A stretch of DNA of 64,000 nt from Micromonospora coriariae (GTDB lineage Bacteria > Actinomycetota > Actinomycetes > Mycobacteriales > Micromonosporaceae), in contig NZ_LT607412.1 in the NCBI RefSeq assembly GCF_900091455.1, positions 62,001-126,000 of the forward strand. The letters run 5' to 3'. The position numbers and the translations under genes were made by a program. Shown here piece by piece: positions 3,012 to 24,562 of the stretch; positions within the stretch are counted from its first letter, which is position 1, and each line of letters starts with the position of its first letter. The notes under the pieces were generated by a model that saw only the letters and a list, made by a program, of their open reading frames with translations, did not search any database and was not told the DNA's origin.

Positions 3012-4683
3012 GGCTCTGTCGCCGGTTGTGTGAAGGGGATCAGTGCGCGAGGAGGACGCGTTTGCGGAGCAGGTCGAGGCCGGCGCGGCCGAACATCTGC
3101 CGTTTGATCATCTTGAGGCGGTTGATGTTGCCTTCGACCGCGCCGGAGCTGTGCGGCAGGGTCAGGCCGTTGCGGACGGCGTCGAAGTCGCGGCGCAGGT
3201 TGCGGGCGAACCCGGCCAGCGGCGTGAGGGTGTCGACTTCGACCGTGGTGATCCACATCTCGAGGCGGTCGCCGTGGCGGCCGGTCATCATGACCGCGAA
3301 GTCTCGCACGTGTTTGACCAGCCGGTTGATGTCCCGATCACGGCCGCGCAGCTCGTGAAGTTTGGTCGCGTCGCGGGCGTCGAGATGGTCAGGATGAGTC
3401 ATGATCCACGAGGTGACTTGACGCACCGATGGCGGTTTCGGGCCGGGGTGTGGGGCGTGGCCGAGGCCTTTGCGGAAGCGGCGTAGGTAACGCTGGACGG
3501 CCAGTTCTCCGCCGGGATAACCCTGCTGTTTGATCTCTCGGAACAGCTGCGTGGCGTTGCGCTGTCCTTCGTTCCAGCGGTGGTGCAGGTAGGCGACGTA
3601 GTCGTCAACCAGGTGCGCGCGTTGCTCGGTGACGGCGGTCAACTCGGTGAAGCTGGCCGCGTTCAGGTATTTGCGGACCGTGGCCTGGTGCAGGCCGAGC
3701 TTGCGGCCGATTGCGGACTTGTTCAGTCCCTGTGCGGCGAGCTCGTGAACAGCGCCGTGATGTTCACGCAGGCGGGTCACGATCTTCTTCTCGGGTAGCG
3801 GCTGCACCTCGGCGGGCATGGAGTCGTCCGCCGCCGAGGGTGCCGGGGCGACGAGCCGGGACCGATAGGCGTTGACGGTCTTCTCGACCGCCTGGCCCAG
3901 GTTCTGCCAGAGATGGAACCGGTCCGCGACCTGAACCGCCTGCGGGGCTCCAGAGCGGGCGCCTTCGCCATAGCCGCCGGCCCGGTCCCGGCAGATCACC
4001 TCGATCTCGGGGTGCTGCCGCAGCCACTCTGCGAGGCTGTCACCGTCGCGGCCGACGAACATGTCGACCGGGCGGTGGCTGTCCATGTCGATCAGCACAG
4101 TGCCGTAATGACGGCCTCGGCGGAACGCGAAGTCGTCGACGCCGAGGACGGTGATCGGCGTCTTCGGCGGGTCAGGCAACGCCTTGACCAACCGCAACAA
4201 CGTGTCGCGACCGGCAGCGACCCCGATCACCAACGCCAACCGGGAACCGGCCCGGCCAGCCAACGCCAAACCAATCTGCGTCAGTACGCCCCGCAGCCCC
4301 GGCGTCAATCGCGCATGCGGACTGGTCAGCCCCTCGATCTGCTCGGCGAACGTCCGCGCCGGGCAGGTGTTGTTGTCGCAGCGGAACCGCCGGATCCGCA
4401 CCTCAAGCAGCAACGCCGTCCCGGCGATCGCGACATCACGCAACCGGCGCTGATACCGGCCATGAACCCTGGCTGACCGCTGCTGGCACCGACCACACCG
4501 CGCGGTCTCCGCCCGGACCCGCGCGGACAGCACCACGACGCCGTCACGCTGCTCAACCGTCTCGATGGACAGAAGCGAGAGATGCGGCAGTAACTGCTCC
4601 ACAAGTGAACACGCCGGACATGATCAACGAAAGCACCGAGTTGGCGACGGACCTGTCCACATCACAAGATCGGCGACAGAGTC
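3012..4683 (-). mobile_element. ISL3-family insertion sequence, complete
   Basis: 1672 bp, bounded by imperfect inverted repeats: left GGCTCTGTCGCCGGT (from 3012) and right, read inward, GACTCTGTCGCCGAT (from 4683). Similarity extends roughly 22 bp. It is flanked by 8-bp direct repeats AAGATCAG and sits inside the IS256-type transposase reading frame. The single transposase gene occupies most of it. The matching target duplications suggest a fairly recent insertion. Confidence 0.92.
3040..4602 (-). CDS. ISL3-family (IS204/IS1001/IS1096/IS1165) transposase
   Basis: 520 aa, full length. The N-terminal zinc-ribbon region has paired cysteines (CGRCQQR near 36-39 and CDNNTCPAR near 75-80), followed by an HTH segment. 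The DDE catalytic core begins VLGVDDFAFRRGRHYGTVL (first Asp), has VICRDRAGGYGEGA (second Asp), and ends with SGAVEGNINRLKMIKRQMFG (Glu). All signature residues are present with no internal stops, so the enzyme is probably functional. Start ATG at 4602. Confidence 0.95.
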   Translation of the reverse strand: MEQLLPHLSLLSIETVEQRDGVVVLSARVRAETARCGRCQQRSARVHGRYQRRLRDVAIAGTALLLEVRIRRFRCDNNTCPARTFAEQIEGLTSPHARLTPGLRGVLTQIGLALAGRAGSRLALVIGVAAGRDTLLRLVKALPDPPKTPITVLGVDDFAFRRGRHYGTVLIDMDSHRPVDMFVGRDGDSLAEWLRQHPEIEVICRDRAGGYGEGARSGAPQAVQVADRFHLWQNLGQAVEKTVNAYRSRLVAPAPSAADDSMPAEVQPLPEKKIVTRLREHHGAVHELAAQGLNKSAIGRKLGLHQATVRKYLNAASFTELTAVTEQRAHLVDDYVAYLHHRWNEGQRNATQLFREIKQQGYPGGELAVQRYLRRFRKGLGHAPHPGPKPPSVRQVTSWIMTHPDHLDARDATKLHELRGRDRDINRLVKHVRDFAVMMTGRHGDRLEMWITTVEVDTLTPLAGFARNLRRDFDAVRNGLTLPHSSGAVEGNINRLKMIKRQMFGRAGLDLLRKRVLLAH

Positions 4684-11372: not shown

Positions 11373-11462
11373 GTGGACCTTCAGTCCATCGCACGAGGCC
11401 CGGAACAGCCTAAACTTGCTGGTGCCCTGACCTTCTAGCTCGGGCTGATCCTAGGAGTGAAC

Positions 11463-12644
11463 ATGCTGTCGGTCCGCCTGCTCGGCGATCTGGAGATTGT
11501 CGTCGACGGTCGGGCCGTCGATCTGTCCGGCATCAAGGCCCAGACACTGATCCTGATCGCGGCCAGCGGCCCGGCGGGCATCACCAGCTCTGACCTGGAG
11601 CGGGCGATGGAGGGCGTCGGCCGCGGAGCGGAGAAGGGCACGCTGCATCGCCGGGTGACCGAGGTTCGCAAGGCCCTCAACAATCAGGTTTCCCCGTACA
11701 AGGACGACCAGTGCTATCGACTGAAGTCCACGTCCCGCGTCACGGTCGATTCGTGGGAGTTTTCCGACGGCGTCGCTCTGCTAGCGGCGGGGGCTCCGGA
11801 TCCGGCCGAGGCGGATCGGCTGATGGGACTGTGGCGCGGCAACCCGCTCCCCCGCCGTTACAGTCCGGCCTGGCCGGTGTGGCGGGCCGTCGCCGAAGGG
11901 CACGATCGGCTGGTGGCGCTGCTCGACGGCTGGGAGCGGGACCGGCTTGCGGAGCTGACCGCGCTGCGGCGGTACGCCTCCCTGTTCCCCGACGACTGGA
12001 AGCTGCAGAAGCTCCGTGGCGCGCTGTCCGGCAAGCCGCAGCTGCTGGTGGTCGAGGACCAGGTGATGGACGAGATCGTGCTGCTGCTCAAGGACGAGTT
12101 CGAGATCGTCCAGGCGGCCAGCTACCGGGACTTCGACGCGCTGCGCGAGTCCGGGGCACTCAACACTGTCCGGGCCGCCCTGGTCGACAAGCATCTGGAA
12201 TCGGAGAGCGACAGTTACGGCACCACCAAGGTAGCCACCTACCTGCAGCGGCACACCGAGATTCCGGTGACCCTGATGTCGGTCGACGTTGAGTACTCCA
12301 GCAACAAGCAGTTCGAGATGTGCCTGAAGTACCGGTTGTCGGACGTGGTGCGCAAGCATCACAACGGAGGGATCAACTCCGGGATCGTCGACGCGGTCCG
12401 CGCGATGGTCGATGACAGCCCGCGGGGGTGGAGCCTGCGGATGCGGCGCTGGGTGGAGTCGGTCGCCTTCACCGTTCAGGACGAGAGCCTGATGGGGCAG
12501 GACAACTCGAACGTCATGGACTGTCTGGCCGCGCGTGACCGGGTGGTCGCTCTGCTGGAGCGTGGTCCGCTGGAGCAGGCCGAGGATGCGGTAGAAGGCT
12601 TTCGGCGACGATGGGATCCGTCAGCCGGGGCAGCCAGGCGCTGA
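11463..12644 (+). CDS. SARP-type wHTH regulator with C-terminal receiver domain
   Basis: 393 aa from ATG 11463, preferred over GTG 11457 because AGGAG (11453-11457) then has proper spacing. Residues 1-100 form an OmpR/SARP-type winged helix (LSVRLLGDLEIVVDGRAV...). Residues about 100-180 resemble the start of a BTAD domain (VDSWEFSDGVALL, EADRLMGLWRGNPLP). Residues about 192-315 form a response-regulator receiver with an intact site: acidic pair E198-D199 (LLVVEDQ), phosphoacceptor D242 (ALVDKHL), S273 (TLMSVD) and K298. Receiver-last order is the reverse of OmpR proteins. Its partner is probably the convergent histidine-kinase-type gene. The last 131 bp overlap that gene tail to tail. Confidence 0.85.
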   Translation: MLSVRLLGDLEIVVDGRAVDLSGIKAQTLILIAASGPAGITSSDLERAMEGVGRGAEKGTLHRRVTEVRKALNNQVSPYKDDQCYRLKSTSRVTVDSWEFSDGVALLAAGAPDPAEADRLMGLWRGNPLPRRYSPAWPVWRAVAEGHDRLVALLDGWERDRLAELTALRRYASLFPDDWKLQKLRGALSGKPQLLVVEDQVMDEIVLLLKDEFEIVQAASYRDFDALRESGALNTVRAALVDKHLESESDSYGTTKVATYLQRHTEIPVTLMSVDVEYSSNKQFEMCLKYRLSDVVRKHHNGGINSGIVDAVRAMVDDSPRGWSLRMRRWVESVAFTVQDESLMGQDNSNVMDCLAARDRVVALLERGPLEQAEDAVEGFRRRWDPSAGAARR

Positions 12645-15138
12645 CCACACCACCCTGCCCCGGCCGGTTCGAGTTGCGGACCTCCAGCACGCCACCGAAC
12701 CGTCGGAGCATGCTGGCGGTCAGCGGGATGCCCTGGCCGGGGCCGTTGCGCAGGCCGGCCGGGTTCCAATCCTTCTCGGCGGCGGCGGCGGCCCGCGTGG
12801 CACGATCCAGATCGCCGGCGGAGAAGCCGGGGCCGTTGTCCATCACCTCGACCACGACCAGTGAACCGGTCAGCGGCACGGGCCGGGGAGCGGACTCGTC
12901 GACGGTATCGACCGACACCTGGATGCCGGGCGGCACACCGTGGCGGCGGGGCGCCGTGCTCAGGGCCCGGGCCGAGTTGACGATCAGGTTGCGCAGTGAC
13001 TCCTGCAGCAGGGCGGGGTTGGCCCGCACCCAGCACGGCTGACCGGTCGGCCGGGGCGTGCGCACGCCGTCCGGCAGCTGCCATTCGGTCGTGCCGACGA
13101 GGGCCTCCAGCAGTCCGGTCATCTCCACCGGTTCGGGGGGAGCGAGGGCGCTCCAGTACAGGTCGACGTAGGTGCCTCCGCCGAGGGCCATGATCCGGTC
13201 TCGGACCTCGGCGAGCCGGAGAAGGACCGCCTCGTCGGCGATGTCGTGCACGGCCCGGTCGAGCTTGCCGATGACGCCGATCACGTCGTTGTCGAGCCGG
13301 TGTCCGATGAGGTGGGTTACCCGGGGGCCGAGGACCGCCGCCGTCGCGTCGTGCTGCCGGCGGACCTCCTTGGTGATCGCCTCCAGCATGGTGCGCGTGC
13401 GTTCCGCCGCGGTCGGCCCGGACGGGTCTCGCAGGGCCGCGACCAGGCCCGGCGCCGGCGGCCGGTACCTGTGCCCGGCGCTGTCCGCGGCCAGCAGGCC
13501 GTGGCCCGCGAGCAGGTCCAGGGCCGTGGCGATGGTCGCAGGGTTGACCATCCAGTCCGTGCCCCGGCCGGAGAGTCCCTGCTCCCGGAACTCGGCGAGC
13601 ATCGTGTCCGCTGTGATCGCCGGTCCGTCGGTGGGGCCGTGCAGGATCAGCCAGAGCACGGCCTGTGCCAGAGTGTCTGCGGCCAGTGACGAGAACACGG
13701 CGTCGCGGATCGCGGTCCGCTGGCCGATCGCGACCCGGCGCAGCACACCGATGCCGACGGGACCGGGCTGCCCGGCGTCGCGGCCGGCGGCGATCAACCC
13801 GTCCAGCATCTGGCGGAGGGCGGCCGGGCTGGAGCCGAAGTCGTGCATCAGCCCGTCGAGGACGGCGGCGTCGCAGGTCAGGCCGAACGCGTCGAGTAGC
13901 CAGGCCAGGTCTTCGCGGTCCTCACAGATCAGCCCGGGTGTGAGCACGTCCGCGGGCTCGAGCTGCGGCAACAGCAGCCGCAACAGGTTGATCCGACGGG
14001 CCGCCGCGTCGCCGGGGAAGCCGTCCACCGGTGCGACCAGTCGTAGCAGGGTGGACACGTCCAGAGTGGCCACTCCGGGGCCGGAGGCCGGGTTCGCGGC
14101 CATGACCGGGCGGAACCACACCAGCGGCCGGGCTAGCACCTCTGCGTCCGGTGGCTCGTCGGCGGCGCTCACCCACATCGTCATCCGGCGGGTGAATGGC
14201 TCAGCTCCGCTCATCCGGCTGTCGGCGAAGTCGATCCGCACCCCGAAGCCCGGGCTGCTAGCGGCTGGGAATGCGTCGCCGGCAACGCCTTCCAGGACCG
14301 CGGCTAGCGCTGCCCCGAACTCGGTCACGACGTCCGGATCGGCCTGCACGGTGACCGCGGTGAGTGCCGCGACCAGCCGCTGGGCCGCGATGTCTGTGGC
14401 CGGCGGGCGGTAGGCGGCGAACTCAGGAGGCGCTGCCCACCTCTGGGCGTACCAGGCCAGTACGTCGGCCACCGGCCGTTCCCGCCACGGCCACTGCCAG
14501 CGGACCGGCCGGACGGTGAGCGGACCCCACCTCGCTTCGCCGAGATCGGTGGTGCCGCTGAGCAACGAGGTGGCGACAGCGAACTCGCCCCGCCGCACGG
14601 AGTCGCGGACCGCGTCCTCCCAGGGCTGGGCATCGGCCTGGGTGGTGTCGTCGCGCAGCCGTTCCGCGAGGCGGTCGTCCAGGATCCCGGCGATGAGCCG
14701 CCCGCGATCACCGAGCAACCGCTGGGCCTGCGCCCGGTCGTGGGCGGCCAGTTCGATCGCCGCGCTGCCGTCCTCGGCGGGCAGGCCGACCTCGCAGGCC
14801 CGGACGTTCAGGTCGGCCCAGGCCCGTTCGACGTCGGCGACGGCCGCGGCCCGGGACAGCTCGAGGTCGGACTCCAGGCGTTCCAGGTCGTCGTCGCCGA
14901 GGGTGCCCGTGCTCTCCAGCGCTTCGATCAGCAGTACTTCGGCCATCGAGTACCGGCCGTCGGCGATGATCGCGGTGATCCCCGCCGCGAGGTCGCGCGG
15001 GCGGGCGATGCCGTCCAGCAGCAGGGTCACCGCAGTGCCGAGATCCGGCCGGTTCCCGCCTGCCAGAGCGGCCGCGAGCTCCGGGTATCGCCAACGGTCG
15101 GCGGAGACCGCGAGTAGGTCGAGGACGTCTGTCGTCAT
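12514..15138 (-). CDS. Large protein with C-terminal histidine-kinase-type ATPase
   Basis: 874 aa from ATG 15138, overlapping the upstream PLD gene stop by 4 bp (ATGA). The first 590 residues are mostly helical and match no family I recognise. A possible H-box (VTHLIGHRLDND, about 607) precedes a GHKL ATPase: N-box ESLRNLIVNSARAL (about 709), G1 box VMDNGPGF (about 766) and G2 box GQGIPLTASMLRRFGG (about 798). This makes it a cytoplasmic, atypical sensor histidine kinase. No membrane segment is seen, so the signal is probably internal or delivered by the operon partners. It faces the SARP-receiver gene, its likely phosphorylation target. Confidence 0.8.
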   Translation of the reverse strand: MTTDVLDLLAVSADRWRYPELAAALAGGNRPDLGTAVTLLLDGIARPRDLAAGITAIIADGRYSMAEVLLIEALESTGTLGDDDLERLESDLELSRAAAVADVERAWADLNVRACEVGLPAEDGSAAIELAAHDRAQAQRLLGDRGRLIAGILDDRLAERLRDDTTQADAQPWEDAVRDSVRRGEFAVATSLLSGTTDLGEARWGPLTVRPVRWQWPWRERPVADVLAWYAQRWAAPPEFAAYRPPATDIAAQRLVAALTAVTVQADPDVVTEFGAALAAVLEGVAGDAFPAASSPGFGVRIDFADSRMSGAEPFTRRMTMWVSAADEPPDAEVLARPLVWFRPVMAANPASGPGVATLDVSTLLRLVAPVDGFPGDAAARRINLLRLLLPQLEPADVLTPGLICEDREDLAWLLDAFGLTCDAAVLDGLMHDFGSSPAALRQMLDGLIAAGRDAGQPGPVGIGVLRRVAIGQRTAIRDAVFSSLAADTLAQAVLWLILHGPTDGPAITADTMLAEFREQGLSGRGTDWMVNPATIATALDLLAGHGLLAADSAGHRYRPPAPGLVAALRDPSGPTAAERTRTMLEAITKEVRRQHDATAAVLGPRVTHLIGHRLDNDVIGVIGKLDRAVHDIADEAVLLRLAEVRDRIMALGGGTYVDLYWSALAPPEPVEMTGLLEALVGTTEWQLPDGVRTPRPTGQPCWVRANPALLQESLRNLIVNSARALSTAPRRHGVPPGIQVSVDTVDESAPRPVPLTGSLVVVEVMDNGPGFSAGDLDRATRAAAAAEKDWNPAGLRNGPGQGIPLTASMLRRFGGVLEVRNSNRPGQGGVVSAWLPRLTDPIVAESLLPHPRPAPADHAPAERPPGHARPDSP

Positions 15139-18100
15139 ACGGCCGCCCCGGCCGTCTCGTCCGAGCGCAGCTCGGCCCATTCCTGCAGCACTGTCAAACC
15201 CTCCAGGATCTCGCGGACGAGCCGAAACTCCGGGTTGGCCGACGCCTCCGCCTCGGCGAGCAGGCCGGGCAGCTCCTGCTTGACGACGGCAGCCAGCGCT
15301 CGGGCGGCGTCGAGGTGCATGGCCTCGTCGGTGTCGGGAGGTATACCCACGTCACCGGAGTTCTCGTAGGCGGCGACGAGTGCCCGTACGTCGTTGGTGA
15401 TCGTGGTGAGCTGGCGGATCAGCCGCCGGCGGTGGTCGCCGTGAATCGGCTCCTTGCTGTCGTCCACCGCGCGGCTCGCGTCGTCAATGAGCCGGTCGAG
15501 GTCTCGGCCGGTGGGGATCGCCGCGCTCAGCCGCGCGGCGAGCTCGTGGATATCCCGGTCCCGGACCCGGGAGGCCACTTCCGCGAAGACGCCGGACTTC
15601 GCTTCGTTGAACAGCTCGCGCAGCGTCCGGGTGCTGTGCATGTTCGGCAACGGGGCGTGCGCCGCCCGCTCCAGCGCGACGTCGAGCTCTCGCCAGAGCC
15701 CGGTCCGCTCGGTCAGCTCCTCGCGACGGTCAAGGCGCGACCGGATCTGCGCCAGCGGGAGGGGACGGTGGTAGCTGGCCTCAGCGTACGCGAGGACGGC
15801 CTCGGCCAGCGGCTGCCAGTCCGGGCCGAGCCGGGTGCGATGGTGCTCGAGGAGCCTCGCGACATCCGGGTCGCCGTCCATCAGGATCCGTTCCACAGCG
15901 GTGGCGAGTATCGCGGTGACAGCGGGGCCATCGGTGCCCGGCATGGCCGGCACCGTGGCGGTCAGCACCTCGCCGTACGGTGCGAGGCCGCGGGCCGCGG
16001 CGACCAGGGCCAGCTCCGGGCTGGGTCGGAAAGCGCCGTCGGCCAGGGCGCGCAGCAGCGCCGCCTCCCGGTACCGGCCGTCCACCCAGAGATCCTCGAC
16101 CAGCCACCGCTGCCATCTCGTGCGGCGCCCGGGCGGCGCGCTCGCGGCATGCCCGCTCAGGCAGAACGCCGCGGCCACCCGCAGCAACGGCCGCCCGGCG
16201 CTCTGGGCGAGCCGGTCGAGCACGTCCCACGGGGAGATCGTGCCGAGGCTGAGGTGCTCGATGATCGCCGCCGCCGGGTCGGCTCCCCGGGACACGTCGG
16301 TGAGGATCCGCTGCGCGACGGTGAACGTGGGGTCGTCGCCCGCCGCGGCCACAGCCGTGCCCGGCGCGGCCTGCGCCACGGCGACGCCCGCCGCGCGGGC
16401 CGCGTCGTCCACGACCGCCCGGCCGGACAGCCGCAGGCCGACCTCGCTGTGCTGCCGGTGCGCGGGCATGGCCTGGTAGGTGCCTTCGAAGGAGAGGAAG
16501 TTGAAGCTGGTGACGATCGCCTCGTCGTCCCAGAGAAGAATCTTCGCGTGGTTGTCGTCGCGGATTACTCGCAGGTGCTTCGGGTGCTGCGCGGCCAGGT
16601 CGAGAAGGGACTGCTCGGCGTGGGTGGGCGCTTTCGAGATAGCGCCACCGTCGGACAGCCGTTCTTTTTCCTCCGGCCGTCCATAGCGGATGGTCACGGC
16701 CACTTCGCGGGCCGCTGCGCGCCGCAGGGCGTCCAGCATCCGCTCGTCCACGACCCGGCCGCTCAGCCGGTCCGAGGTGATCACGAGTCGTTCCCGGGCC
16801 TGGCGCAGGGCGTGCCACAGCAGTCGTCGGTGCTCGCCGTCGATCACCACCGCGGCCTGCGGATGCGTGCGGACCGCGACCTGGCCGGCCACCTGCCGGG
16901 CCACAAACTGCCAGCCCTCCGCCCACATCCCGGCGGCCAGGGCCGCGGCGGCGTCGTCACTCTCGTCCGGGGTGTCCGGGACACCGGGGTACCGGGGTAG
17001 CCAATCCGGGTCCGGGTCCTTACGCTGCGACGCGAAGGGCGCGAAGTCCTGTTCGGTGACGAACATCAGCTGGCTCATCCGGTACCCCGGAATCGCCGTG
17101 CGAGCCCACCGCAGTATGTCCCGGATCACCTGGCTGCCGCCGTTGCCGCCGGCCTCCGCCGGCGCGGTGACGTGGACCCCGGTCTCGTGCTGCGGAACCG
17201 CCCGGCTGAGCATGTTCCAGCTGGTCACCAGCGCGCAGCTGTCGTCGGCGACGACGATCTTGGCGTGTGTCCGCACGGCCGTGTCCGGAAGCAGGAACCA
17301 TGGCCCGGTGCCCGGGCGGTCCGGCCCGGGCACCGGGTCCGGCTCCTCGCCGGGAACCGCCGCCACCAGGGTACGGGCGCCGGTGCGCAGCACGGTGTCG
17401 TAGAGCAGGTGACTGACCCTGGGATCCAGATTGGCCTGGAAGTTGATGCCCCACAGCAGGGCCACCCGGACGTTGCGCTCCAGCGCGGCACGCAGTTCAG
17501 GGAGCAGCGCTTGCAGGCCGTCGTAGCTGATCCACGGGCAGGCCAGGACCAGTTGGATGCGGGCCGAGCGAATGATGTCGGTGAGCACCTCCAGGTGCTC
17601 CGCGCCGGTCAGCACCCGCGCGGTGACCTCGGATTCGGTCCGAGCGTCGATCATCGCCCGCAGTTGGCGGTAGTCGTCCGCCATCAGGTTGTGCGTGCGG
17701 CGGCGCTGTCCGGCGGGCGCGTTCGCCGCGTTGCTGGCCTGATCGGCCAGCCGTTTCATCGCCCGGGCCAGGGTCGGCGCCGCGAGCAGGCCGGGTGCCA
17801 GCCGTCCGCGCAGGGCCTGAACGAACGGGTCGTCGGGGCGGCCGGTCACCAGCCGGGTCAGCTGTGCTGTCGCGGCGCTCCGGTAGGTCTCCGGCAGCCG
17901 GCTGTCGATCACCAACACGGTGATCTCGTCATTGTCCGGGTCGACGGCGGCCTGAATCTCCAGCGGCAGCCAGCGCCGCCCGCCTACACCGGTGAGCGCC
18001 TCGGCCTGGTAGGCGCCGAGCACCCGGCGCGCGCGGGTCGGGATCTGCCGCTGGTCACTGTCCGGCCGCTGTTGCAGCTCCTCCTGCGCCAGGCCCCGCT

Positions 18101-18572
18101 CGATCGCCTGGAGCAGGTCAGCCTGCGCCGCGGTGCCGACCCGGATCGGGCTGTTCTCCACCGGAACGGCCAGGTGGGGTCTGCCGTCGTAGCCGGGCCG
18201 GGTGGCCGGCATCACGTACCCGGACAGCTTGTCGATCATGACATGCCGGTCGTCGACGAGAGTCTCCGCACTGCGGAGCGTCCCCAGCGTGCGGTCGGCT
18301 ATGTGCTTCGCGACGTCCGCGGTGACCTCGAGCCCGGCGTACGACCGGACCAGCCGCAGGTAGCCGGTCCGCCACAGGTCCTGAACCACGTCGAGGGTCA
18401 TCCGGCGGCTCAGGCCCAGCACGTCGGAGAGGCTCGACAGGGTGCTCGCGCCCGCGTGCACCGCCTTGAGGACCACCTGCTCCATCGGGGTCAGCGTCTC
18501 CTGGTAACCCAGTCGGACCCGGATCCTGCCCACGTCACACGGCACGTAGACGGTCAGCTTGTCGCCGCTCAC
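15135..18572 (-). CDS. wHTH protein with two phospholipase-D (HKD) motifs
   Basis: 1145 aa, ATG overlapping the helicase stop by 4 bp. Residues about 25-95 form a winged helix (TPMEQVVLKAVHAGASTLSS, then SDVLGLSRRMTLDVVQDLW). Two complete HxKx4D motifs are present: THAKIVVADDS (H436) followed by VTSWN, and NHAKILLWDDE (H675) followed by VTSFNF. Together they make one PLD active site. The C-terminal 380 residues are helical and unrecognised. PLD proteins include nucleases (Nuc, BfiI, DISARM DrmC) as well as lipases. The helicase neighbour and lack of membrane or signal sequences favour a nuclease, which is inference. Confidence 0.88.
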   Translation of the reverse strand: MSGDKLTVYVPCDVGRIRVRLGYQETLTPMEQVVLKAVHAGASTLSSLSDVLGLSRRMTLDVVQDLWRTGYLRLVRSYAGLEVTADVAKHIADRTLGTLRSAETLVDDRHVMIDKLSGYVMPATRPGYDGRPHLAVPVENSPIRVGTAAQADLLQAIERGLAQEELQQRPDSDQRQIPTRARRVLGAYQAEALTGVGGRRWLPLEIQAAVDPDNDEITVLVIDSRLPETYRSAATAQLTRLVTGRPDDPFVQALRGRLAPGLLAAPTLARAMKRLADQASNAANAPAGQRRRTHNLMADDYRQLRAMIDARTESEVTARVLTGAEHLEVLTDIIRSARIQLVLACPWISYDGLQALLPELRAALERNVRVALLWGINFQANLDPRVSHLLYDTVLRTGARTLVAAVPGEEPDPVPGPDRPGTGPWFLLPDTAVRTHAKIVVADDSCALVTSWNMLSRAVPQHETGVHVTAPAEAGGNGGSQVIRDILRWARTAIPGYRMSQLMFVTEQDFAPFASQRKDPDPDWLPRYPGVPDTPDESDDAAAALAAGMWAEGWQFVARQVAGQVAVRTHPQAAVVIDGEHRRLLWHALRQARERLVITSDRLSGRVVDERMLDALRRAAAREVAVTIRYGRPEEKERLSDGGAISKAPTHAEQSLLDLAAQHPKHLRVIRDDNHAKILLWDDEAIVTSFNFLSFEGTYQAMPAHRQHSEVGLRLSGRAVVDDAARAAGVAVAQAAPGTAVAAAGDDPTFTVAQRILTDVSRGADPAAAIIEHLSLGTISPWDVLDRLAQSAGRPLLRVAAAFCLSGHAASAPPGRRTRWQRWLVEDLWVDGRYREAALLRALADGAFRPSPELALVAAARGLAPYGEVLTATVPAMPGTDGPAVTAILATAVERILMDGDPDVARLLEHHRTRLGPDWQPLAEAVLAYAEASYHRPLPLAQIRSRLDRREELTERTGLWRELDVALERAAHAPLPNMHSTRTLRELFNEAKSGVFAEVASRVRDRDIHELAARLSAAIPTGRDLDRLIDDASRAVDDSKEPIHGDHRRRLIRQLTTITNDVRALVAAYENSGDVGIPPDTDEAMHLDAARALAAVVKQELPGLLAEAEASANPEFRLVREILEGLTVLQEWAELRSDETAGAAV

Positions 18573-21500
18573 ACCAGCACCTCACCGGAGTCGCCGTCCG
18601 CCGGGCCAGGCACCAGGCCGGGCAGATTGCCGTACAGCTCCTCGGCGGGCACCCTGACCCCATAGAGCTCGACGGCGCGGCAGACCTGGGGCCAGAAACC
18701 GGCGCTGCGGGCGTAGTGGTCGAACCGGCCGATCAGCACGAGCTGCCGACGCGCCCGGGAGAACAGGACGTTCACCAGTTGCCGCTGCCCCAGGTGCCCG
18801 AGCCCGGCGCCAGATGCCGCCGCTCCCGAGCGGCCAAGGCGGGCCTGGTCGCGGACGAGAGATACGATCACCATGTCCGCCTCGCGGCCCTGGAACGCGT
18901 GCACGGTCGACAGGTACGGTCGGGCCAGGCCGACGCCCTGCAACAGCCGGATCTGCTCCCGATACGGCGTGAGCACGGCCAGCGGGTCCGGCCCGTAACC
19001 GCCCCTGTTCGCCACCGGGAACGGATCGAGATCCTCCAGCAGTCTCTTGACCAGGGCCGCCTCGCCTGAGTTCGACCAGTGCGGATCGTCGTGACAGGAC
19101 GCGATGCCGGCGGTGTCCAGCCACACCAGCGACTGCTGGTCCAACCGGCGGGGCCGCATCAGCCGCACGGCAGGAATCCGGTTGGTGAAGTCCTCATCGA
19201 TGTGGGTCGCGAGACCGCCCACCGGCAGGCCGTCCGCCGCAAGCACCGCCGGCTGCTCCCCGGCAGGGTAGAAGACGCGACTTACCAACTCGCCGATCGG
19301 CTCACGCATCCGGAACTGCGTCGACATCCGCCGCAACGGCCGCCTCGGGTCGGGCTGTCCCTCAAAGAGGGTGCCGAACAGGTCGAACACCCGCATGTAG
19401 GCGGTCACCTTCTCCGGCGTAATGCCGGCCATCTGGCTGTTCGTGTCGGCCGCGCAGGCGTCCAGGAACCGTTTGAGATCCTGCCGGCGGTGCGCCGGCA
19501 GCTGGAAGTGGTCGCCGATGAGTGTCCAGCGCAGTCCGCGTAGCAGCGGCATGGCCAGCTCGGTCGGCCAGGCCTTCGCGGCCTCCTCCACCACCACCCA
19601 GTTGAACACCGACTCGGTGGTGGGCGACAGCAGCTCCGGCGCGGACGCGGCACAGGTGGCGAAGACCAGGTTGGCGCCCCGGTGCAGGCGGTCAGCCAGC
19701 TCGGGCACGACCCACTCCCCGGACTCCTGCTTCCCGGACAGCATCCTGGACCACTCGTCGAGCACCGCGACCAGTTGCCCGGGCATACCGGGGTCCGGAT
19801 CCCCGGTCAGCCGGTTGACACGGGCCCTGACCTCGGCGGTCAGCCGGACGGCCGCATCGAGCCGCCGCCACGGGCGCACCGCGCGATCGACCCGTTCCTG
19901 GGCGGCCAGACCACGGGTGCTCACCCGCAACGCGAGCGGGCGCATCCGGTCCTCCGTGAGGTGCTGAACCGGCCGCCCCGCGTCGTCCATCTCGCCGAGC
20001 TCCCGCAGCACCCGCACGGCCAGGTTGTCCAGGGCGAAGTTCGACTGGGCCGAGACCAGGATCCGGGCGGTCGGGTCCCGTCTCAGGTAGGCGGCGATGG
20101 CGGCCGCGGCCACCCGGGTCTTACCGGTGCCCGGTGGCCCCTGCACCGCAGAGAGCGGTTCGCACACCAGGATCTCCTGGACCACCTCCTGCCCGCCGCC
20201 CTTCAGGCCGGCGCCTGCGTCCTGCCAGTGGTGCGCGAACGTCCGGATCGTGCGCGGATCGCGCAGGTATCGCTGCAGGTGCGTGGCCCGGTACAGCTCC
20301 ACGCTCGCGGCGCGCTGCCGGTCCAGGCCCTGCTGGCTGCCCCGGTCGTCGGCGGGGCGGACCCAGCCCCGCTCGGGCAGGGGCTGCTCGCCCGGCTTGC
20401 GGCGTAGCCGTACCCGGTCCTGTCCATCCTTGCTCTCGACATAGGCCCGGCTGACCCACCGGCCGGGCTTACCGTTGCGATCCTCCAGGACGTCCACCTC
20501 GGAGTCTCCGTCTTCGTTCTCCAGGTCACCGAGGAACGAGCCGAACTCCGGGCGCAGGGCCGGGGTCGCCGCGTACTTGACGAAGGCCGCCGAGCTGACG
20601 ATGCGGCGCCGGTCGCGCTCCGCGTCGTAGTGGACCAGGACAGTAGAGCGGTCGGTGTGCCCGGCGACCTCGAACGGGTAGGTCCGGGCATCCAGCTCCA
20701 CCTCCTGGAAGTCCAGCAGCCAGTCGATCGCCTCGCGGAAGCTCAGCTCGTCCGGGGAGGCGGTGCTGACCGGCCGGGTCGCCTCGACGAGGACCTTCCA
20801 GGACGGGGCCCGGTCGATCCGGCGAGCCATGTACTCGCGGTCGATGTCGATGGCCCGCAACTCTAGGTCGGGCACCAGCCGTGCCGAGGTCCAATCGAGT
20901 TGCCGCAGCTTCTTCTCGTTCACCGGCAGATCCAGCCGGGCGACGTACCGGATGATCAGCGCCTGCTCGGTGTGCGCCTCCATCGCCCCGTACTCGTCTC
21001 GGGGCCGGTAGTAGTCGCAGAACCAGGCCAGGTCCGTCCCCCGGATCACCTGGGTGGCGGTGCTGGTGCTGGAGCGGACCCCGCGTACGAACGGCTCGGC
21101 TCCGAACGGCGAGTGGGCCATGTAGGCACCGCGCATGTCGGCCGCGATGTAGGCGGCCAGTTCCTCACGCCCGAGCTCGCTCTCCGGATCCTGCTTCACC
21201 AGGCCCCAGCGGTAGATGGTTTCGGAGCTCTCCCGCGGCATGAAGACCATGAGGTGCTTGCGGACGGTGACAGAGCCCTCGATGTCCGTCATGATCCGGT
21301 CGTACGCCCCGCTCAGCCGGCCGAGCACCTCGTCCGCCGACGGCCGGTCGGCCGCCTCGCCCGACAGCATCCCGGCGAGCAGCCCGGCCAGATCCGGTGG
21401 GATCCGGGTGTCGGCCAGCACCGTCTCCCGCAGGTACCGGGCGAACGCCAGGGAGGCCTGGTACCCCTGCTCGGCGGCCTCCCGATCCATCGGGCCGTCC

Positions 21501-22297
21501 GGCCAGGCGGGGCGGCGGTCCGCGGGGAACGGACCGAGGAACCACTCCCAGACGACCGCGGCCAGCCCGTACACGTCCGACTGCGGACTCTCCATCAGGT
21601 TCGCCTCGGTACCGAGCAGGAAGGCCACCCGCTCCGGCGGCGCGTAGGCGAGGTCCCGGCCGAGAACCGCACGCAGCTCACCGGGGTCAGCGGCGCTGTC
21701 CACAGTGGTCCGAAACAGGTCGAGGATCAGTGAGCTGAGCTCGAAACGGGCAAGCCGCAGCCGGGCCCCTTCGTGGACGTCGATGCTGGCCGGCGAAACA
21801 CTGCGGTGGCTGATGCCGAGGAAGTGCAGCTCGGCGAGGCCCTCGGCCAGGGATCGGAACTGCCTGACCGCCTCGGCCCGATGGGTTCGAAAGCGGTCGA
21901 TCTCCTGGGCCCCGGCACACCGCCGGCTGCCCCGGGTCGCGACGAACGCCATGCCGCCCGGCACCTGCACCTGCCGGGTCATCGCGTCGTCCAGGTAGCC
22001 GCCGTCGAGCACCTCGGGCAGCGCCGGATGCGGGATGCCCGAGACCCGCAGCAGCGACCGGACGTCCTGCTCCCAGAGCAGGCCGCCCATCTCCTCGATG
22101 CCGAGGAAGAGCTGGATATCGACCGGGCGCATGGTGCGGTCCAGCAACCGCAGCCGATAGATGCGGCCGGAAGCCAGTTCCTCCGCCTCGATCGGATCGT
22201 CCTCGTCATCGTCGCCCGTGCTGTACGGCCCGAACTCCGCGGTGGGACCACAGAGGAATCGTTTGACGAGCTTTATTGCATTCGCAGTGGACCCCAC
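18569..22297 (-). CDS. Pseudokinase fused to UPF1-like SF1 helicase
   Basis: 1242 aa, GTG start. Residues about 30-340 have a Ser/Thr-kinase-like fold with APPE, SDVYGLAAVVWEW and DRPSADEVL motifs. However, the catalytic loop reads GISHRSVSPASI (H164-R165-S166 instead of HRD) and the DFG position reads RFE (184-186), so it is predicted to be catalytically dead. After a middle region of about 370 residues comes an AAA_11/AAA_12 SF1 helicase: Walker A GPPGTGKT (720-727), Walker B VVVEEAAKAW (E904-E905), motif III LIGDHFQLPAH, STVHAFQGREADMVIVSLV and NVLFSRARRQLVLIGR. It is the first gene of a three-gene operon. The pseudokinase may sense or scaffold while the helicase unwinds RNA or DNA. Confidence 0.9.
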   Translation of the reverse strand: MGSTANAIKLVKRFLCGPTAEFGPYSTGDDDEDDPIEAEELASGRIYRLRLLDRTMRPVDIQLFLGIEEMGGLLWEQDVRSLLRVSGIPHPALPEVLDGGYLDDAMTRQVQVPGGMAFVATRGSRRCAGAQEIDRFRTHRAEAVRQFRSLAEGLAELHFLGISHRSVSPASIDVHEGARLRLARFELSSLILDLFRTTVDSAADPGELRAVLGRDLAYAPPERVAFLLGTEANLMESPQSDVYGLAAVVWEWFLGPFPADRRPAWPDGPMDREAAEQGYQASLAFARYLRETVLADTRIPPDLAGLLAGMLSGEAADRPSADEVLGRLSGAYDRIMTDIEGSVTVRKHLMVFMPRESSETIYRWGLVKQDPESELGREELAAYIAADMRGAYMAHSPFGAEPFVRGVRSSTSTATQVIRGTDLAWFCDYYRPRDEYGAMEAHTEQALIIRYVARLDLPVNEKKLRQLDWTSARLVPDLELRAIDIDREYMARRIDRAPSWKVLVEATRPVSTASPDELSFREAIDWLLDFQEVELDARTYPFEVAGHTDRSTVLVHYDAERDRRRIVSSAAFVKYAATPALRPEFGSFLGDLENEDGDSEVDVLEDRNGKPGRWVSRAYVESKDGQDRVRLRRKPGEQPLPERGWVRPADDRGSQQGLDRQRAASVELYRATHLQRYLRDPRTIRTFAHHWQDAGAGLKGGGQEVVQEILVCEPLSAVQGPPGTGKTRVAAAAIAAYLRRDPTARILVSAQSNFALDNLAVRVLRELGEMDDAGRPVQHLTEDRMRPLALRVSTRGLAAQERVDRAVRPWRRLDAAVRLTAEVRARVNRLTGDPDPGMPGQLVAVLDEWSRMLSGKQESGEWVVPELADRLHRGANLVFATCAASAPELLSPTTESVFNWVVVEEAAKAWPTELAMPLLRGLRWTLIGDHFQLPAHRRQDLKRFLDACAADTNSQMAGITPEKVTAYMRVFDLFGTLFEGQPDPRRPLRRMSTQFRMREPIGELVSRVFYPAGEQPAVLAADGLPVGGLATHIDEDFTNRIPAVRLMRPRRLDQQSLVWLDTAGIASCHDDPHWSNSGEAALVKRLLEDLDPFPVANRGGYGPDPLAVLTPYREQIRLLQGVGLARPYLSTVHAFQGREADMVIVSLVRDQARLGRSGAAASGAGLGHLGQRQLVNVLFSRARRQLVLIGRFDHYARSAGFWPQVCRAVELYGVRVPAEELYGNLPGLVPGPADGDSGEVLV

Positions 22298-22515
22298 ACC
22301 GCCCCCATCCGCTCACGAGTACGGCGAGCGTACGCGTGCTCCCAGTGACTAGACACCCACCACGAGTGCGGATTTCCCGCTGAGTTCGGCACCGCCACAC
22401 AGACGGAAATCAGCGGCGACTCAGGTCGTCGTCCATGTCTTGGGTCAGCCGCACCCGTGTTGAGTCGAGTCCAGAGAGGCCCCGGCTCGCGGGGCCGGAA
22501 ACGGAGTAGATGATC
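22298..22515. promoter_or_regulatory. Divergent promoter region of the candidate system
   Basis: 218 bp between the divergently transcribed helicase operon and the TIR/NDT-S1 gene must hold promoters for both. CCGCTGA (within about 22368-22385) and TCAGCGG (within about 22405-22420) form an inverted repeat. I cannot assign -35/-10 boxes confidently. Confidence 0.45.
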
Positions 22516-23781
22516 ATGAGCGAACTGCACCTCCTGCGCGACGAGCGGCCGATCGAAGGCCGACTGTTCTTCGCCACCCCCTGGGGCAAGAAGGAGCTGC
22601 CCGACGGCAGCGTCTTCGACTTCAACGCGTTCTACGAGAACGAGCTGAAGGCGACGGCCGAGGCAGCCGGCTTTACGCCGGTCCGGGCGGACAACATCTA
22701 CGGCCCGCAATCGGTGATGGGACCGATCTGGCGGGGCATCCAGCAGGCCGAGATCGTCGCCATCGACTTCACCCTACGGAACCCCAACGTGGCGATGGAG
22801 TACATGATGGCGATGCTGATCGGCAAGCGGTGCGTCTACCTGACCCAGGACCCCGACGACATCCCGACCGATGTCCGCGGACGGCTGCGCTACATCCGCT
22901 ACAGCGACCGCTACCAGGATGTCAGCCGGATGCGTGAAGAGCTGCGCAACCAGCTGATCGCCATCCGCTCCGAGCCGGCGGTCGAGATGGCCCTGGTGCC
23001 GATGGCGGCCGGCGGCACCGACCCGGTGCCCGCCACCGTCATCACGGTGACCTCCGAGTTCGCCGTGATCGAGGCGAGCGGCGGTCGGCGGGGCGTGCTC
23101 GGCAACGCCGACGTCGACTACAACCGGATCGTTCCGGACATGACGCGGCTGTACTCGATCGGTACCCGGGTGACCGGTGCCTTCGACGTCGACACCGGCG
23201 GCGGCATGAAGTACACCCTGCTCGCCGGCACCCCGAACCCGTGGCCACGGCTGCGCACCGAGTTCCCCTCCGGCACCACGATCAGCGGCACGGTCCGCCG
23301 GACCCGGGACGGCATCGGGGCGTTCGTCGAGGTCGGGTACGGCATCGACGGCCTGATCCACACCTCCGCACTGGCCGGCCGCACCCTCTCCGCCGGGGAC
23401 CAGGTGGTGGCCAGTGTGATCCGGGTCGACGCCGACCGGCGCCGGATCTCCCTGGCGTTGGACCGGGTGGTCAACGCCGCCGGGCCGCCTACCCCGCTCG
23501 CCGTGCCAGCCGCCGACCTCGGGGCGTTCCGGCTCGGGCAGCGGCTGGAGGCCGAGGTGGTCAAGGTGGTCCGCCAGGGTGACGGCGGATACCTGCTGGT
23601 CCAGCTCCCGGACCGGCGAAAGCCCGCGATGCTGCACTCCTCGGCGATGAGCCCGGAGCTGCGCGAGGGCCTCACGGACGACGACATCGAGGTCGGCGAG
23701 ATCATCGACGTCGAGGTGTTGCGGATCGACACCGTCCGAGACCGCATCACGGTGCGTGACCTGCCGGAGACAGCGTCGTAG
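22516..23781 (+). CDS. TIR/nucleoside-deoxyribosyltransferase-like domain with S1 repeats
   Basis: 421 aa from ATG 22516; GGAG (22503-22506) fits this start better than ATG 22510. Residues about 8-125 match the nucleotide-processing fold related to TIR and nucleoside deoxyribosyltransferases: RLFFATPWG, PVRADNIYGPQSVMGPIW, IVAIDFTLRNPNVAMEYMMA and DIPTDVRGRLRYIRY. E95 in NPNVAMEY is at the position of the catalytic Glu in NDT relatives. Residues about 253-320 (GTTISGTVRRTRDGIGAFVE, then GLIHTSAL) and about 339-415 are S1/OB RNA-binding repeats. A third, degenerate one lies at about 160-240. An NAD- or nucleotide-cleaving effector activated by RNA is plausible but inferred. Confidence 0.82.
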   Translation: MSELHLLRDERPIEGRLFFATPWGKKELPDGSVFDFNAFYENELKATAEAAGFTPVRADNIYGPQSVMGPIWRGIQQAEIVAIDFTLRNPNVAMEYMMAMLIGKRCVYLTQDPDDIPTDVRGRLRYIRYSDRYQDVSRMREELRNQLIAIRSEPAVEMALVPMAAGGTDPVPATVITVTSEFAVIEASGGRRGVLGNADVDYNRIVPDMTRLYSIGTRVTGAFDVDTGGGMKYTLLAGTPNPWPRLRTEFPSGTTISGTVRRTRDGIGAFVEVGYGIDGLIHTSALAGRTLSAGDQVVASVIRVDADRRRISLALDRVVNAAGPPTPLAVPAADLGAFRLGQRLEAEVVKVVRQGDGGYLLVQLPDRRKPAMLHSSAMSPELREGLTDDDIEVGEIIDVEVLRIDTVRDRITVRDLPETAS

Positions 23782-23936: not shown

Positions 23937-24311
23937 TCACACCTTGAGGACGTCCACGTCGTAGAGCGCTATCGACGCGTCGCGGGAGGCCAGGGTCAGA
24001 CTTTCGGTGATCGCCTGGGCCACCAGCATGCGAGCGAACGGATCGCGGTGATGCGGTGGCAGGCGGCCGGCGGCGATGGCGTGGGCGTGGGTCACCGGGA
24101 GTTCGCGGAAGCCCATGTCTCTTACCCGCTCGGCGAGGTCAGGGGGTCCTTGGAGTTTCCCCGCACTCTGTTTGATGGTGATCTCCCACAGGGTGACCGG
24201 GGACAGGAAGATGTCCGGCTCGTGGCGTAGCCGGTCGAGGAACTCGGTGCCGAGGGTCGCGTCGCCGGTGATGGCCAAGAGCGCGACGTGGGTGTCCAGC
24301 AGCAGGGTCAT
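23937..24311 (-). CDS. VapC-type PIN-domain toxin
   Basis: 124 aa. The PIN fold starts MTLLLDTHVALLA (first Asp), has SPVTLWEITIKQSAGKL (conserved Glu) and ends HRDPFARMLVAQAITE (DPF Asp) and LASRDASIALYDV (last acidic residue). The expected product is a Mg-dependent endoribonuclease. It overlaps the antitoxin gene by 4 bp, the usual translational coupling of a toxin-antitoxin pair. Confidence 0.93.
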   Translation of the reverse strand: MTLLLDTHVALLAITGDATLGTEFLDRLRHEPDIFLSPVTLWEITIKQSAGKLQGPPDLAERVRDMGFRELPVTHAHAIAAGRLPPHHRDPFARMLVAQAITESLTLASRDASIALYDVDVLKV

Positions 24312-24562
24312 GCGCCGATGCCGAAGTCGTCGGCGATCTCGGCGTTGGTCTGCGGTGAATCCCAGTCGCCGGTGAGGTCCAGTTGCCCGGCGAGGGAGCC
24401 GACTGCCGTGCGGTTGGCCCGCCGGACCAGCGGCACGACCTTCGCCACCGGCGTGCCGGCCCGGTCGATGATGATCTCCTCGCCCTGTTCCACCCGTTCG
24501 ATGATGCGCGACAGGTGGGTCTTGGCATCATGCATGTTGTAGTGCGCGGCCTCACCCGACAT
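24308..24562 (-). CDS. Phd/YefM-type antitoxin
   Basis: 84 aa. The N-terminal DNA-binding domain has the Phd/YefM signature (YNMHDAKTHLSRIIERVEQG, then EEIIIDRAGTPVAKVVPL). The C-terminal tail, rich in Asp/Asn, is the expected toxin-binding part. It is the first gene of the pair and likely represses the operon together with the PIN toxin. Confidence 0.93.
   Translation of the reverse strand: MSGEAAHYNMHDAKTHLSRIIERVEQGEEIIIDRAGTPVAKVVPLVRRANRTAVGSLAGQLDLTGDWDSPQTNAEIADDFGIGA

What the first reader, a model, noticed from the sequence alone, without database searches (positions are those of the whole stretch)
11463..23781. Candidate undescribed two-component-controlled conflict system (five genes)
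Seen: pseudokinase-SF1 helicase, double-HKD protein and histidine-kinase-type ATPase genes joined by 4-bp overlaps. A SARP-receiver regulator converges on the operon. A TIR/NDT-like plus S1 gene diverges from it. A PIN toxin-antitoxin pair lies directly beyond. Known: helicase + PLD nuclease is a recurring defence theme (e.g. DISARM), kinase-helicase fusions occur in conflict systems, and TIR/NDT-like domains act as effectors. Inference: a phosphorelay-regulated system that senses foreign or aberrant nucleic acid, processes it with helicase and nuclease, and triggers a nucleotide-cleaving effector. I cannot match the full set to a named system.
Basis: partly seen in the sequence, partly recalled or inferred. 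Interest (0 to 1): 0.92.

Follow-up and report, generated by a model that had tools for sequence, protein, structure and literature searches.

The report
Mokosh phage-defence operon with phosphorelay
This soil-bacterium locus looks like a version of the known anti-phage system Mokosh that carries its own two-component signalling pair and, next to it, a probable nucleotide-cleaving, RNA-binding effector, which suggests a helicase-nuclease defence that can raise an internal alarm.

Summary
The five genes are real and placed as described. The core is not undescribed: the kinase-helicase and double-HKD proteins match PADLOC's Mokosh models MkoA (8e-236) and MkoB (2e-164). What those models do not cover is the rest. 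In 18 of 18 actinobacterial Mokosh loci examined, a third protein of the histidine-kinase-like family is encoded next to MkoB; in three it is fused to MkoB. In 200 Streptomycetaceae genomes it occurs only in the 8 that have MkoA. A receiver protein sits beside it in 13 of 18; the other five, one clade, lack the HxxxN phospho-acceptor motif (present in 10 of the 13) and have a STAND-WD40 gene upstream. The receiver is fused to a SARP-like DNA-binding module, or in one locus to a Death-like domain matched by a neighbouring TCAD9-Death-like gene. A TIR/NDT-fold plus S1 gene accompanies the set in 6 of 18. SARP-type 11-bp direct repeats (TCAG-N7-TCAG) cluster in regulatory regions; here one lies between MkoA and the TIR/NDT-S1 gene. 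Best reading: Mokosh engagement feeds a phosphorelay that switches on a second-line effector. Phage defence and phosphotransfer are inferred, not shown. New variant of a known kind.

The parts
11463..12644 (+). Response regulator: N-terminal SARP-like winged-helix/BTAD-type region, C-terminal receiver domain (phospho-acceptor D244, acidic E200/D201, Lys300; numbering from the GTG at 11457)
   Evidence: Profile of 13 homologues: AfsR E 7.2e-8 (positions 4-197), MtrA receiver E 3.4e-7; acidic pair, Asp, Ser/Thr and Lys kept in 13 of 13 by inspection of the alignment
12514..15138 (-). Third component: histidine-kinase-like protein without a clear membrane segment; about 570-residue N-terminal helical region, DHp-like helices with H627 (numbering from 15180), HATPase_c domain
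   Evidence: HATPase_c 1.5e-6; predicted model matches DHp-CA histidine kinases, CckA E 2.0e-7; homologue in 18 of 18 actinobacterial Mokosh loci, window included
15135..18572 (-). MkoB: double-HKD (PLD-type) phosphodiesterase with a C-terminal extension of about 375 residues beyond the Mokosh model
   Evidence: PADLOC MkoB 2e-164 over residues 6-769; PLDc/PLDc_2
18569..22297 (-). MkoA: pseudokinase + UPF1/SMUBP2-like SF1 helicase
   Evidence: PADLOC MkoA 8e-236; AAA_11/AAA_12; closest solved relatives by sequence SMUBP-2 and UPF1/NAM7; kinase motifs lost
22298..22509 (.). Divergent MkoA / TIR-NDT-S1 intergenic region
22410..22424 (+). Candidate SARP-type operator: TCAG-N7-TCAG, 11-bp direct repeat (AAATCAG-CGGC-GACTCAG), 86-100 bp upstream of the effector gene
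   Evidence: 11 of 15 such matches in 252,787 bp of 13 receiver-bearing loci fall in the 4,255 bp of regulatory regions, expected 0.25; one of 2 in the whole 64-kb window
22510..23781 (+). Candidate effector: TIR/NDT-fold domain (residues about 14-155, E97) + S1/OB-type RNA-binding domains

Best explanation
A Mokosh type I anti-phage system extended by a dedicated phosphorelay and a second-line effector. SHOWN (sequence and comparison): MkoA (pseudokinase-helicase) and MkoB (PLD nuclease-like) form the core; a histidine-kinase-like protein is encoded with them in every actinobacterial Mokosh locus examined and is sometimes fused to MkoB; a receiver protein accompanies it in most; the receiver's output module varies (SARP-like, or Death-like bDLD3); SARP-type repeats lie in the regulatory regions. 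INFERRED: MkoA-MkoB engages phage-derived or aberrant nucleic acid (probably RNA, from its UPF1-like helicase). Because the kinase is tethered to MkoB, that engagement triggers autophosphorylation at H627 and transfer to D244 of the regulator. The phosphorylated regulator binds the 11-bp repeats between MkoA and the TIR/NDT-S1 gene and raises transcription of the effector, perhaps of the core too. The effector is placed on RNA or ribosomes by its S1 domains and cleaves a nucleotide (NAD+ or a (d)NMP-like substrate), stopping phage growth or the cell. In one same-genus relative (L116) the receiver would instead recruit a TCAD9 effector through paired Death-like domains.
For: MkoA/MkoB identity. 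Kinase-like gene in 18 of 18 loci and fused to MkoB in 3 (L115, L119, L120). Its N-terminal family is found in 8 of 200 Streptomycetaceae genomes, the same 8 as MkoA; some of those rows built the profile, so the informative part is its absence from the other 192. Receiver in 13 of 18. HxxxN at H627 in 10 of 13 receiver-bearing loci and 0 of 5 receiver-less ones, Fisher p 0.0065 uncorrected for descent. AF2 model of the C-terminal part matches whole DHp-CA kinases. TCAG-N7-TCAG repeats in the regulatory regions of 8 of 13 loci, plus L141 with a 12-bp period; the other periods from 6 to 17 gave 0 of 47 there. bDLD3-receiver beside TCAD9-bDLD3 in L116. TIR/NDT-S1 next to the set in 6 of 18; 7 of 22 protein-database homologues share a contig length with an MkoA protein. 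A review passage says Mokosh degrades viral transcripts (PMC11291487).
Against: The five receiver-less loci keep the ATPase domain without HxxxN, so phosphotransfer is not essential to the protein's role in Mokosh. The His evidence is alignment-dependent and weaker than HxxxN alone suggests: His in the H627 column in 12 of 13 receiver-bearing and 2 of 5 receiver-less loci (L143, L144; the rest Tyr, Tyr, Phe), p 0.044; a second alignment gives 13 of 13 and 0 of 5; L119 and L120 have His without the Asn; L121 has Lys in the first alignment. The five are one clade, so this may be one event. Mokosh in 4 plasmid loci outside Actinobacteria has only MkoA+MkoB, so the core can exist without the relay. 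TIR/NDT-S1 is absent from 12 of 18 loci, and a divergent full-length homologue occurs without MkoA in G1149, near a contig edge. No repeat upstream of the regulator in this window, nor any in L115, L116, L119, L120 regulatory regions. The repeat was noticed before it was counted. No experiment.
Confidence: 0.47

Rival explanations
1. The two-component pair only sets the expression level of an otherwise ordinary Mokosh system in response to a cell-state signal (stress, development); it does not read out Mokosh activity, and TIR/NDT-S1 is simply co-regulated.
For: SARP-type regulators commonly control expression in actinomycetes (recalled); repeats lie in promoter regions; two-component control of CRISPR-Cas is in print (PMC8523701, search listing and start of abstract only).
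Against: The kinase protein has no clear membrane segment (highest 19-residue hydropathy 1.67, borderline) and no Pfam domain besides HATPase_c, and it is fused to MkoB in 3 of 18 loci; the bDLD3-receiver in L116 shows no DNA-binding match and neighbours a TCAD9-bDLD3 gene. This favours a read-out of Mokosh itself.
Confidence: 0.26
2. The third protein is an ATPase scaffold or gate of the Mokosh complex (GHKL-type conformational switch); the receiver binds it as a partner without true phosphotransfer, or the His/Asp chemistry is vestigial.
For: Present in 18 of 18 loci including five without HxxxN and receiver; large conserved N-terminal region; fused to MkoB in three; three receiver-bearing loci (L119, L120, L121) depart from HxxxN in the first alignment.
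Against: HxxxN in 10 of 13 receiver-bearing loci and 0 of 5 without; acidic pair, Asp, Ser/Thr and Lys kept in 13 of 13 receivers.
Confidence: 0.17
3. TIR/NDT-S1 is an independent defence or housekeeping gene that merely neighbours Mokosh in a defence-rich region.
For: Only 6 of 18 loci; its position differs (beside MkoA here, beside the regulator in L115 and L138-L141); a divergent homologue without MkoA in G1149.
Against: In the 200-genome Streptomycetaceae sample the four strong matches (E <= 1e-83; all four were also rows of the profile) are at Mokosh loci and no other genome has one; TIR/NDT-S1-bearing MkoAs fall in one clade (96/97 support); the candidate operator lies beside the gene in both arrangements, though not in L115.
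Confidence: 0.1

Closest known systems
Mokosh type I (MkoA + MkoB)
   Same: Kinase-like + SF1 helicase protein and PLD protein, adjacent and in the same order as in four plasmid Mokosh loci; full-length matches to PADLOC models PDLC03920 and PDLC03922
   Different: Kinase part is a pseudokinase; MkoB has a C-terminal extension of about 375 residues; added histidine-kinase-like gene, receiver regulator and TIR/NDT-S1 gene, none of which hits a Mokosh model in PADLOC 2.0.0. A NERD domain, listed for Mokosh type I in a table passage of PMC10952713, gave no Pfam hit here; PADLOC has two MkoA models of different length and I do not know which carries it
Detocs (defensive two-component system)
   Same: Two-component logic joined to a nucleotide-cleaving effector (glossary passage of PMC11249213; gene details recalled)
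   Different: Here the receiver is fused to a DNA-binding or Death-like module and the candidate effector is a separate gene; a Mokosh core is present; the three-gene Detocs architecture is absent
Conflict systems with bacterial Death-like domains and ternary-complex-associated domains (PMC8195603, PMC7159879; passages only)
   Same: bDLD3 and TCAD9 in locus L116; the STAND + WD40 architecture upstream of MkoA in L123-L125, L143, L144 is of a kind such systems use (recalled)
   Different: In the passages read, those papers report receivers occurring independently of histidine kinases; here a kinase-like gene is present. A MoxR-vWA core was not looked for
AfsR-type SARP regulators
   Same: Winged-helix + BTAD-type region and 11-bp-spaced direct repeats (that SARP sites have this spacing is recalled)
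   Different: Fused to a C-terminal receiver domain

Membership tests
Mokosh type I | MkoA: protein-kinase-like domain + SF1 helicase | tested here: met
   PADLOC MkoA 8e-236, residues 34-1218
Mokosh type I | MkoB: PLD-type protein encoded next to MkoA | tested here: met
   PADLOC MkoB 2e-164, 4-bp overlap
Mokosh type I | Protects against phage | not testable with these tools
   no experiment
Two-component system | Histidine kinase with DHp His and HATPase domain | tested here: met
   HATPase_c; H627 in a predicted helix of low confidence; model matches CckA DHp-CA; activity not tested
Two-component system | Receiver with acidic pair, phospho-Asp, Ser/Thr, Lys | tested here: met
   13 of 13 by inspection; profile matches MtrA
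Two-component system | Phosphotransfer between the pair | not testable with these tools
   inferred from co-occurrence and the HxxxN/receiver association only
Detocs | Effector domain fused to the receiver (recalled) | tested here: not met
   receiver fused to SARP-like region; TIR/NDT-S1 is a separate gene
DISARM | Class I DrmC by NCBIfam | tested here: not met
   NF038319 63.5 bits against a cut-off of 133
DISARM | DrmA and DrmB core | tested here: not met
   no DrmA/DrmB hit for the seven proteins at E 0.01
TIR or NDT enzyme family (P0005 N-terminus) | Membership of TIR or of NDT/DNPH1 | tested here: inconclusive

The most novel reading that the evidence does not exclude
Actinobacterial Mokosh is a sensor platform, not only a nuclease: the helicase-PLD complex drives a tethered histidine kinase, whose receiver is an exchangeable adaptor (SARP transcription here, Death-domain-like recruitment in L116) to exchangeable effectors (TIR/NDT-S1, TCAD9). 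In a sister clade the phosphorelay was lost and a STAND-WD40 gene (with an LCAT-like lipase seen in three of five loci) is found upstream instead.
Probability: 0.38. Interest if true: 0.87.

Novelty: new variant of a known kind. Interest (0 to 1): 0.74.

Why it matters
The passages on Mokosh that I could read say that it degrades viral transcripts but not how it is triggered. A conserved kinase-receiver pair gives a direct handle: what stimulates the kinase is what Mokosh senses, and its output is measurable by phosphotransfer or promoter reporters. It would also be a case of bacterial immunity using a phosphorelay with a swappable receiver output, in one relative a Death-like domain, bridging two-component signalling and the STAND/TCAD conflict systems of multicellular bacteria. 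For annotation, actinobacterial Mokosh should be called as a three- to five-gene system.

Tried and rejected
Rejected: 'undescribed core' (it is Mokosh). DISARM (weak DrmC hits only). PIN/Phd pair as a component (no homologue in the neighbourhoods searched). MkoB-kinase fusion in L143: the two lie in different frames.

Corrected on checking: I had first read the H627 column by eye as His in 12 of 13 and Arg in 5 of 5, and computed a Fisher p of 0.0007 on that reading. Counting by column gave 12 of 13 and 2 of 5 (p 0.044), and HxxxN 10 of 13 and 0 of 5 (p 0.0065). The report uses the recount; for that reason I lowered the best explanation from 0.50 to 0.47 and the novel case from 0.40 to 0.38, and raised two rivals slightly.

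tblastn of the kinase protein on plasmids: no match. Exact 8-mer repeats in the window: none in the MkoA/effector region; the period-11 scan there scored 14/21, reached by 20 of 300 shuffles, which is not strong alone. Foldseek on the effector: the listed 50 rows were mostly S1/OB-type proteins. Family of G064: 3 genomes, no match.

Literature: searches, open-access PMC only. Mokosh with 'histidine kinase' gave 2 papers, one occurrence of each term in each, on Acinetobacter and a Salmonella phage by title; I did not open them. Millman et al. (Mokosh) and the primary Detocs paper were not read (recalled). A DefensePredictor figure legend (PMC13092281, one passage) lists HATPase and REC in predicted systems; I could not tell whether any resembles this one.

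Full report
WHAT IS THERE. The window is bases 62001-126000 of a 6.93-Mb one-contig genome. The genus is most likely Micromonospora: the kinase gene product is 94% identical to one of M. sediminimaris. Five genes occupy 11457-23781: a SARP-receiver regulator (+), then on the minus strand a histidine-kinase-like gene, a double-HKD gene and a pseudokinase-helicase gene linked by 4-bp overlaps, and a divergent TIR/NDT-S1 gene (+).

WHAT THE CORE IS. PADLOC names the helicase protein MkoA (8e-236) and the HKD protein MkoB (2e-164), i.e. Mokosh type I. The other three proteins hit no Mokosh model; the regulator has only a weak TPR-model hit (3.1e-5). The helicase is UPF1/SMUBP2-like by sequence. 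The kinase domain has lost its catalytic Asp in 37 of 38 aligned relatives. Of 168 plasmid records with a helicase match I opened four: Nitratireductor, Rhizobium, Ancylobacter and Tolypothrix. All four hold a PADLOC MkoA-MkoB pair, with MkoB of 509-591 residues, and neither a kinase-like nor a receiver gene is annotated beside it (their gene tables are incomplete).

WHAT IS ADDED. MkoA-profile searches of 354 (family), 397 (order), 394 (class), 112, 22, 200 and 3 genomes (samples overlap) plus L021 gave, with the window, 18 distinct actinobacterial Mokosh loci. Neighbourhoods were read and scored by iterated HMM search. The kinase-like third gene is in 18 of 18 and lies in one frame with MkoB in L115, L119 and L120. 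Pfam HATPase_c, tried on five besides the window, passes its cut-off in four (L116, L122, L123, L124) and falls below it in L125. The association holds in reverse: its N-terminal family is found in 8 of 200 Streptomycetaceae genomes, the same 8 as MkoA (rows from these genomes were in the profile, so the test is the absence from the other 192). The receiver protein is in 13 of 18: convergent with the kinase gene in 11, codirectional in L119 and L120. TIR/NDT-S1 is in 6 of 18 (window, L115, L138, L139, L140, L141). In the protein database 7 of 22 TIR/NDT-S1 homologues lie on contigs whose length equals that of one of the 120 MkoA proteins listed (of 368). Of the 18 MkoA rows of that clade, five (P0012, P0020, P0023, P0025, P0029) have no such match.

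A SISTER DESIGN. L123, L124, L125, L143 and L144 lack the receiver. All five have a STAND-type ATPase-WD40 gene upstream of MkoA, with an LCAT-like lipase gene in L123, L124 and L125; in L143 and L144 the fetched stretch ends there, so the lipase was not tested. They form one MkoA clade with 100/100 support.

WHY A PHOSPHORELAY. The AF2 model of the kinase protein (mean pLDDT 70, five-row alignment, low around H627) matches whole DHp-CA kinases. At H627 the HxxxN motif is present in 10 of 13 receiver-bearing loci (L119 and L120 have His without Asn, L121 has Lys) and in 0 of 5 receiver-less loci (Fisher p 0.0065). His alone is 12 of 13 against 2 of 5 (p 0.044); a second alignment method gives 13 of 13 against 0 of 5. 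The region is weakly conserved, the five are one clade, and L121 has a split MkoA, so this is support, not proof. All 13 receivers keep the acidic pair, phospho-Asp, Ser/Thr and Lys.

WHAT THE RECEIVER DOES. As a family its N-terminus is SARP-like (profile match to AfsR). In L116 it is a Death-like domain bDLD3 with no DNA-binding Pfam match, and the next gene is TCAD9-bDLD3, so the output looks exchangeable. Consistent with DNA binding, TCAG-N7-TCAG repeats (11-bp period) lie in the regulator's upstream region in L118, L121, L021, L138, L139 and L140, at the regulator start in L122 (opposite strand), and in the window between MkoA and TIR/NDT-S1 (22410-22424): 11 of 15 matches in 1.7% of the sequence, expected 0.25. 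L141 has the 12-bp version (2 of 9 period-12 matches). The remaining periods from 6 to 17 had 0 of 47 there, period 18 had 1 of 9. None lies in the regulatory regions of L115, L116, L119 or L120. Cautions: the pattern was seen before it was counted, L139 and L140 are near-identical, and the window's MkoA/effector intergenic was added as a region.

VERDICT. A real, recurring extension of Mokosh: core known, signalling and effector layer not found described in the searches named. The step from Mokosh engagement to kinase activation, and anti-phage action itself, are inference.

Noticed in passing
window 23937-24562 (-): PIN toxin / Phd-YefM antitoxin pair directly beyond the effector gene; no homologue in the related neighbourhoods searched
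   Followed up: partly
window 3040-4602 (-): ISL3-family transposase about 7 kb from the system, hinting at a mobile context
   Followed up: no
window 12514-12644: Regulator and kinase genes overlap convergently by 131 bp at their 3' ends; only 6 bp in L139 and L140
   Followed up: no
L116 889-2460 (-) and 3264-3998 (+): TCAD9-bDLD3 gene next to a bDLD3-receiver gene at a Mokosh locus: a Death-like adaptor pair
   Followed up: partly
L123, L124, L125, L143, L144: Mokosh variant without receiver, STAND-WD40 gene upstream (LCAT-like lipase seen in three) and no HxxxN motif in the kinase-like protein
   Followed up: partly
L121 2628-5438 (+): nSTAND1 + CHASE3 protein with a weak caspase-like match near a Mokosh locus with split MkoA
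   Followed up: no
L022 7203-8783 (+): MAG labelled Hyphomicrobiales: Mokosh with a third gene resembling only the N-terminal part of the kinase protein, no HATPase hit
   Followed up: partly
L172 493-1842 (+): Divergent TIR/NDT-S1 homologue in a genome without an MkoA match, near a contig edge
   Followed up: partly
L130 7552-11007 (+): Cyanobacterial plasmid MkoA keeps HRDIKPNN, so its kinase may be active, unlike the actinobacterial clade
   Followed up: no
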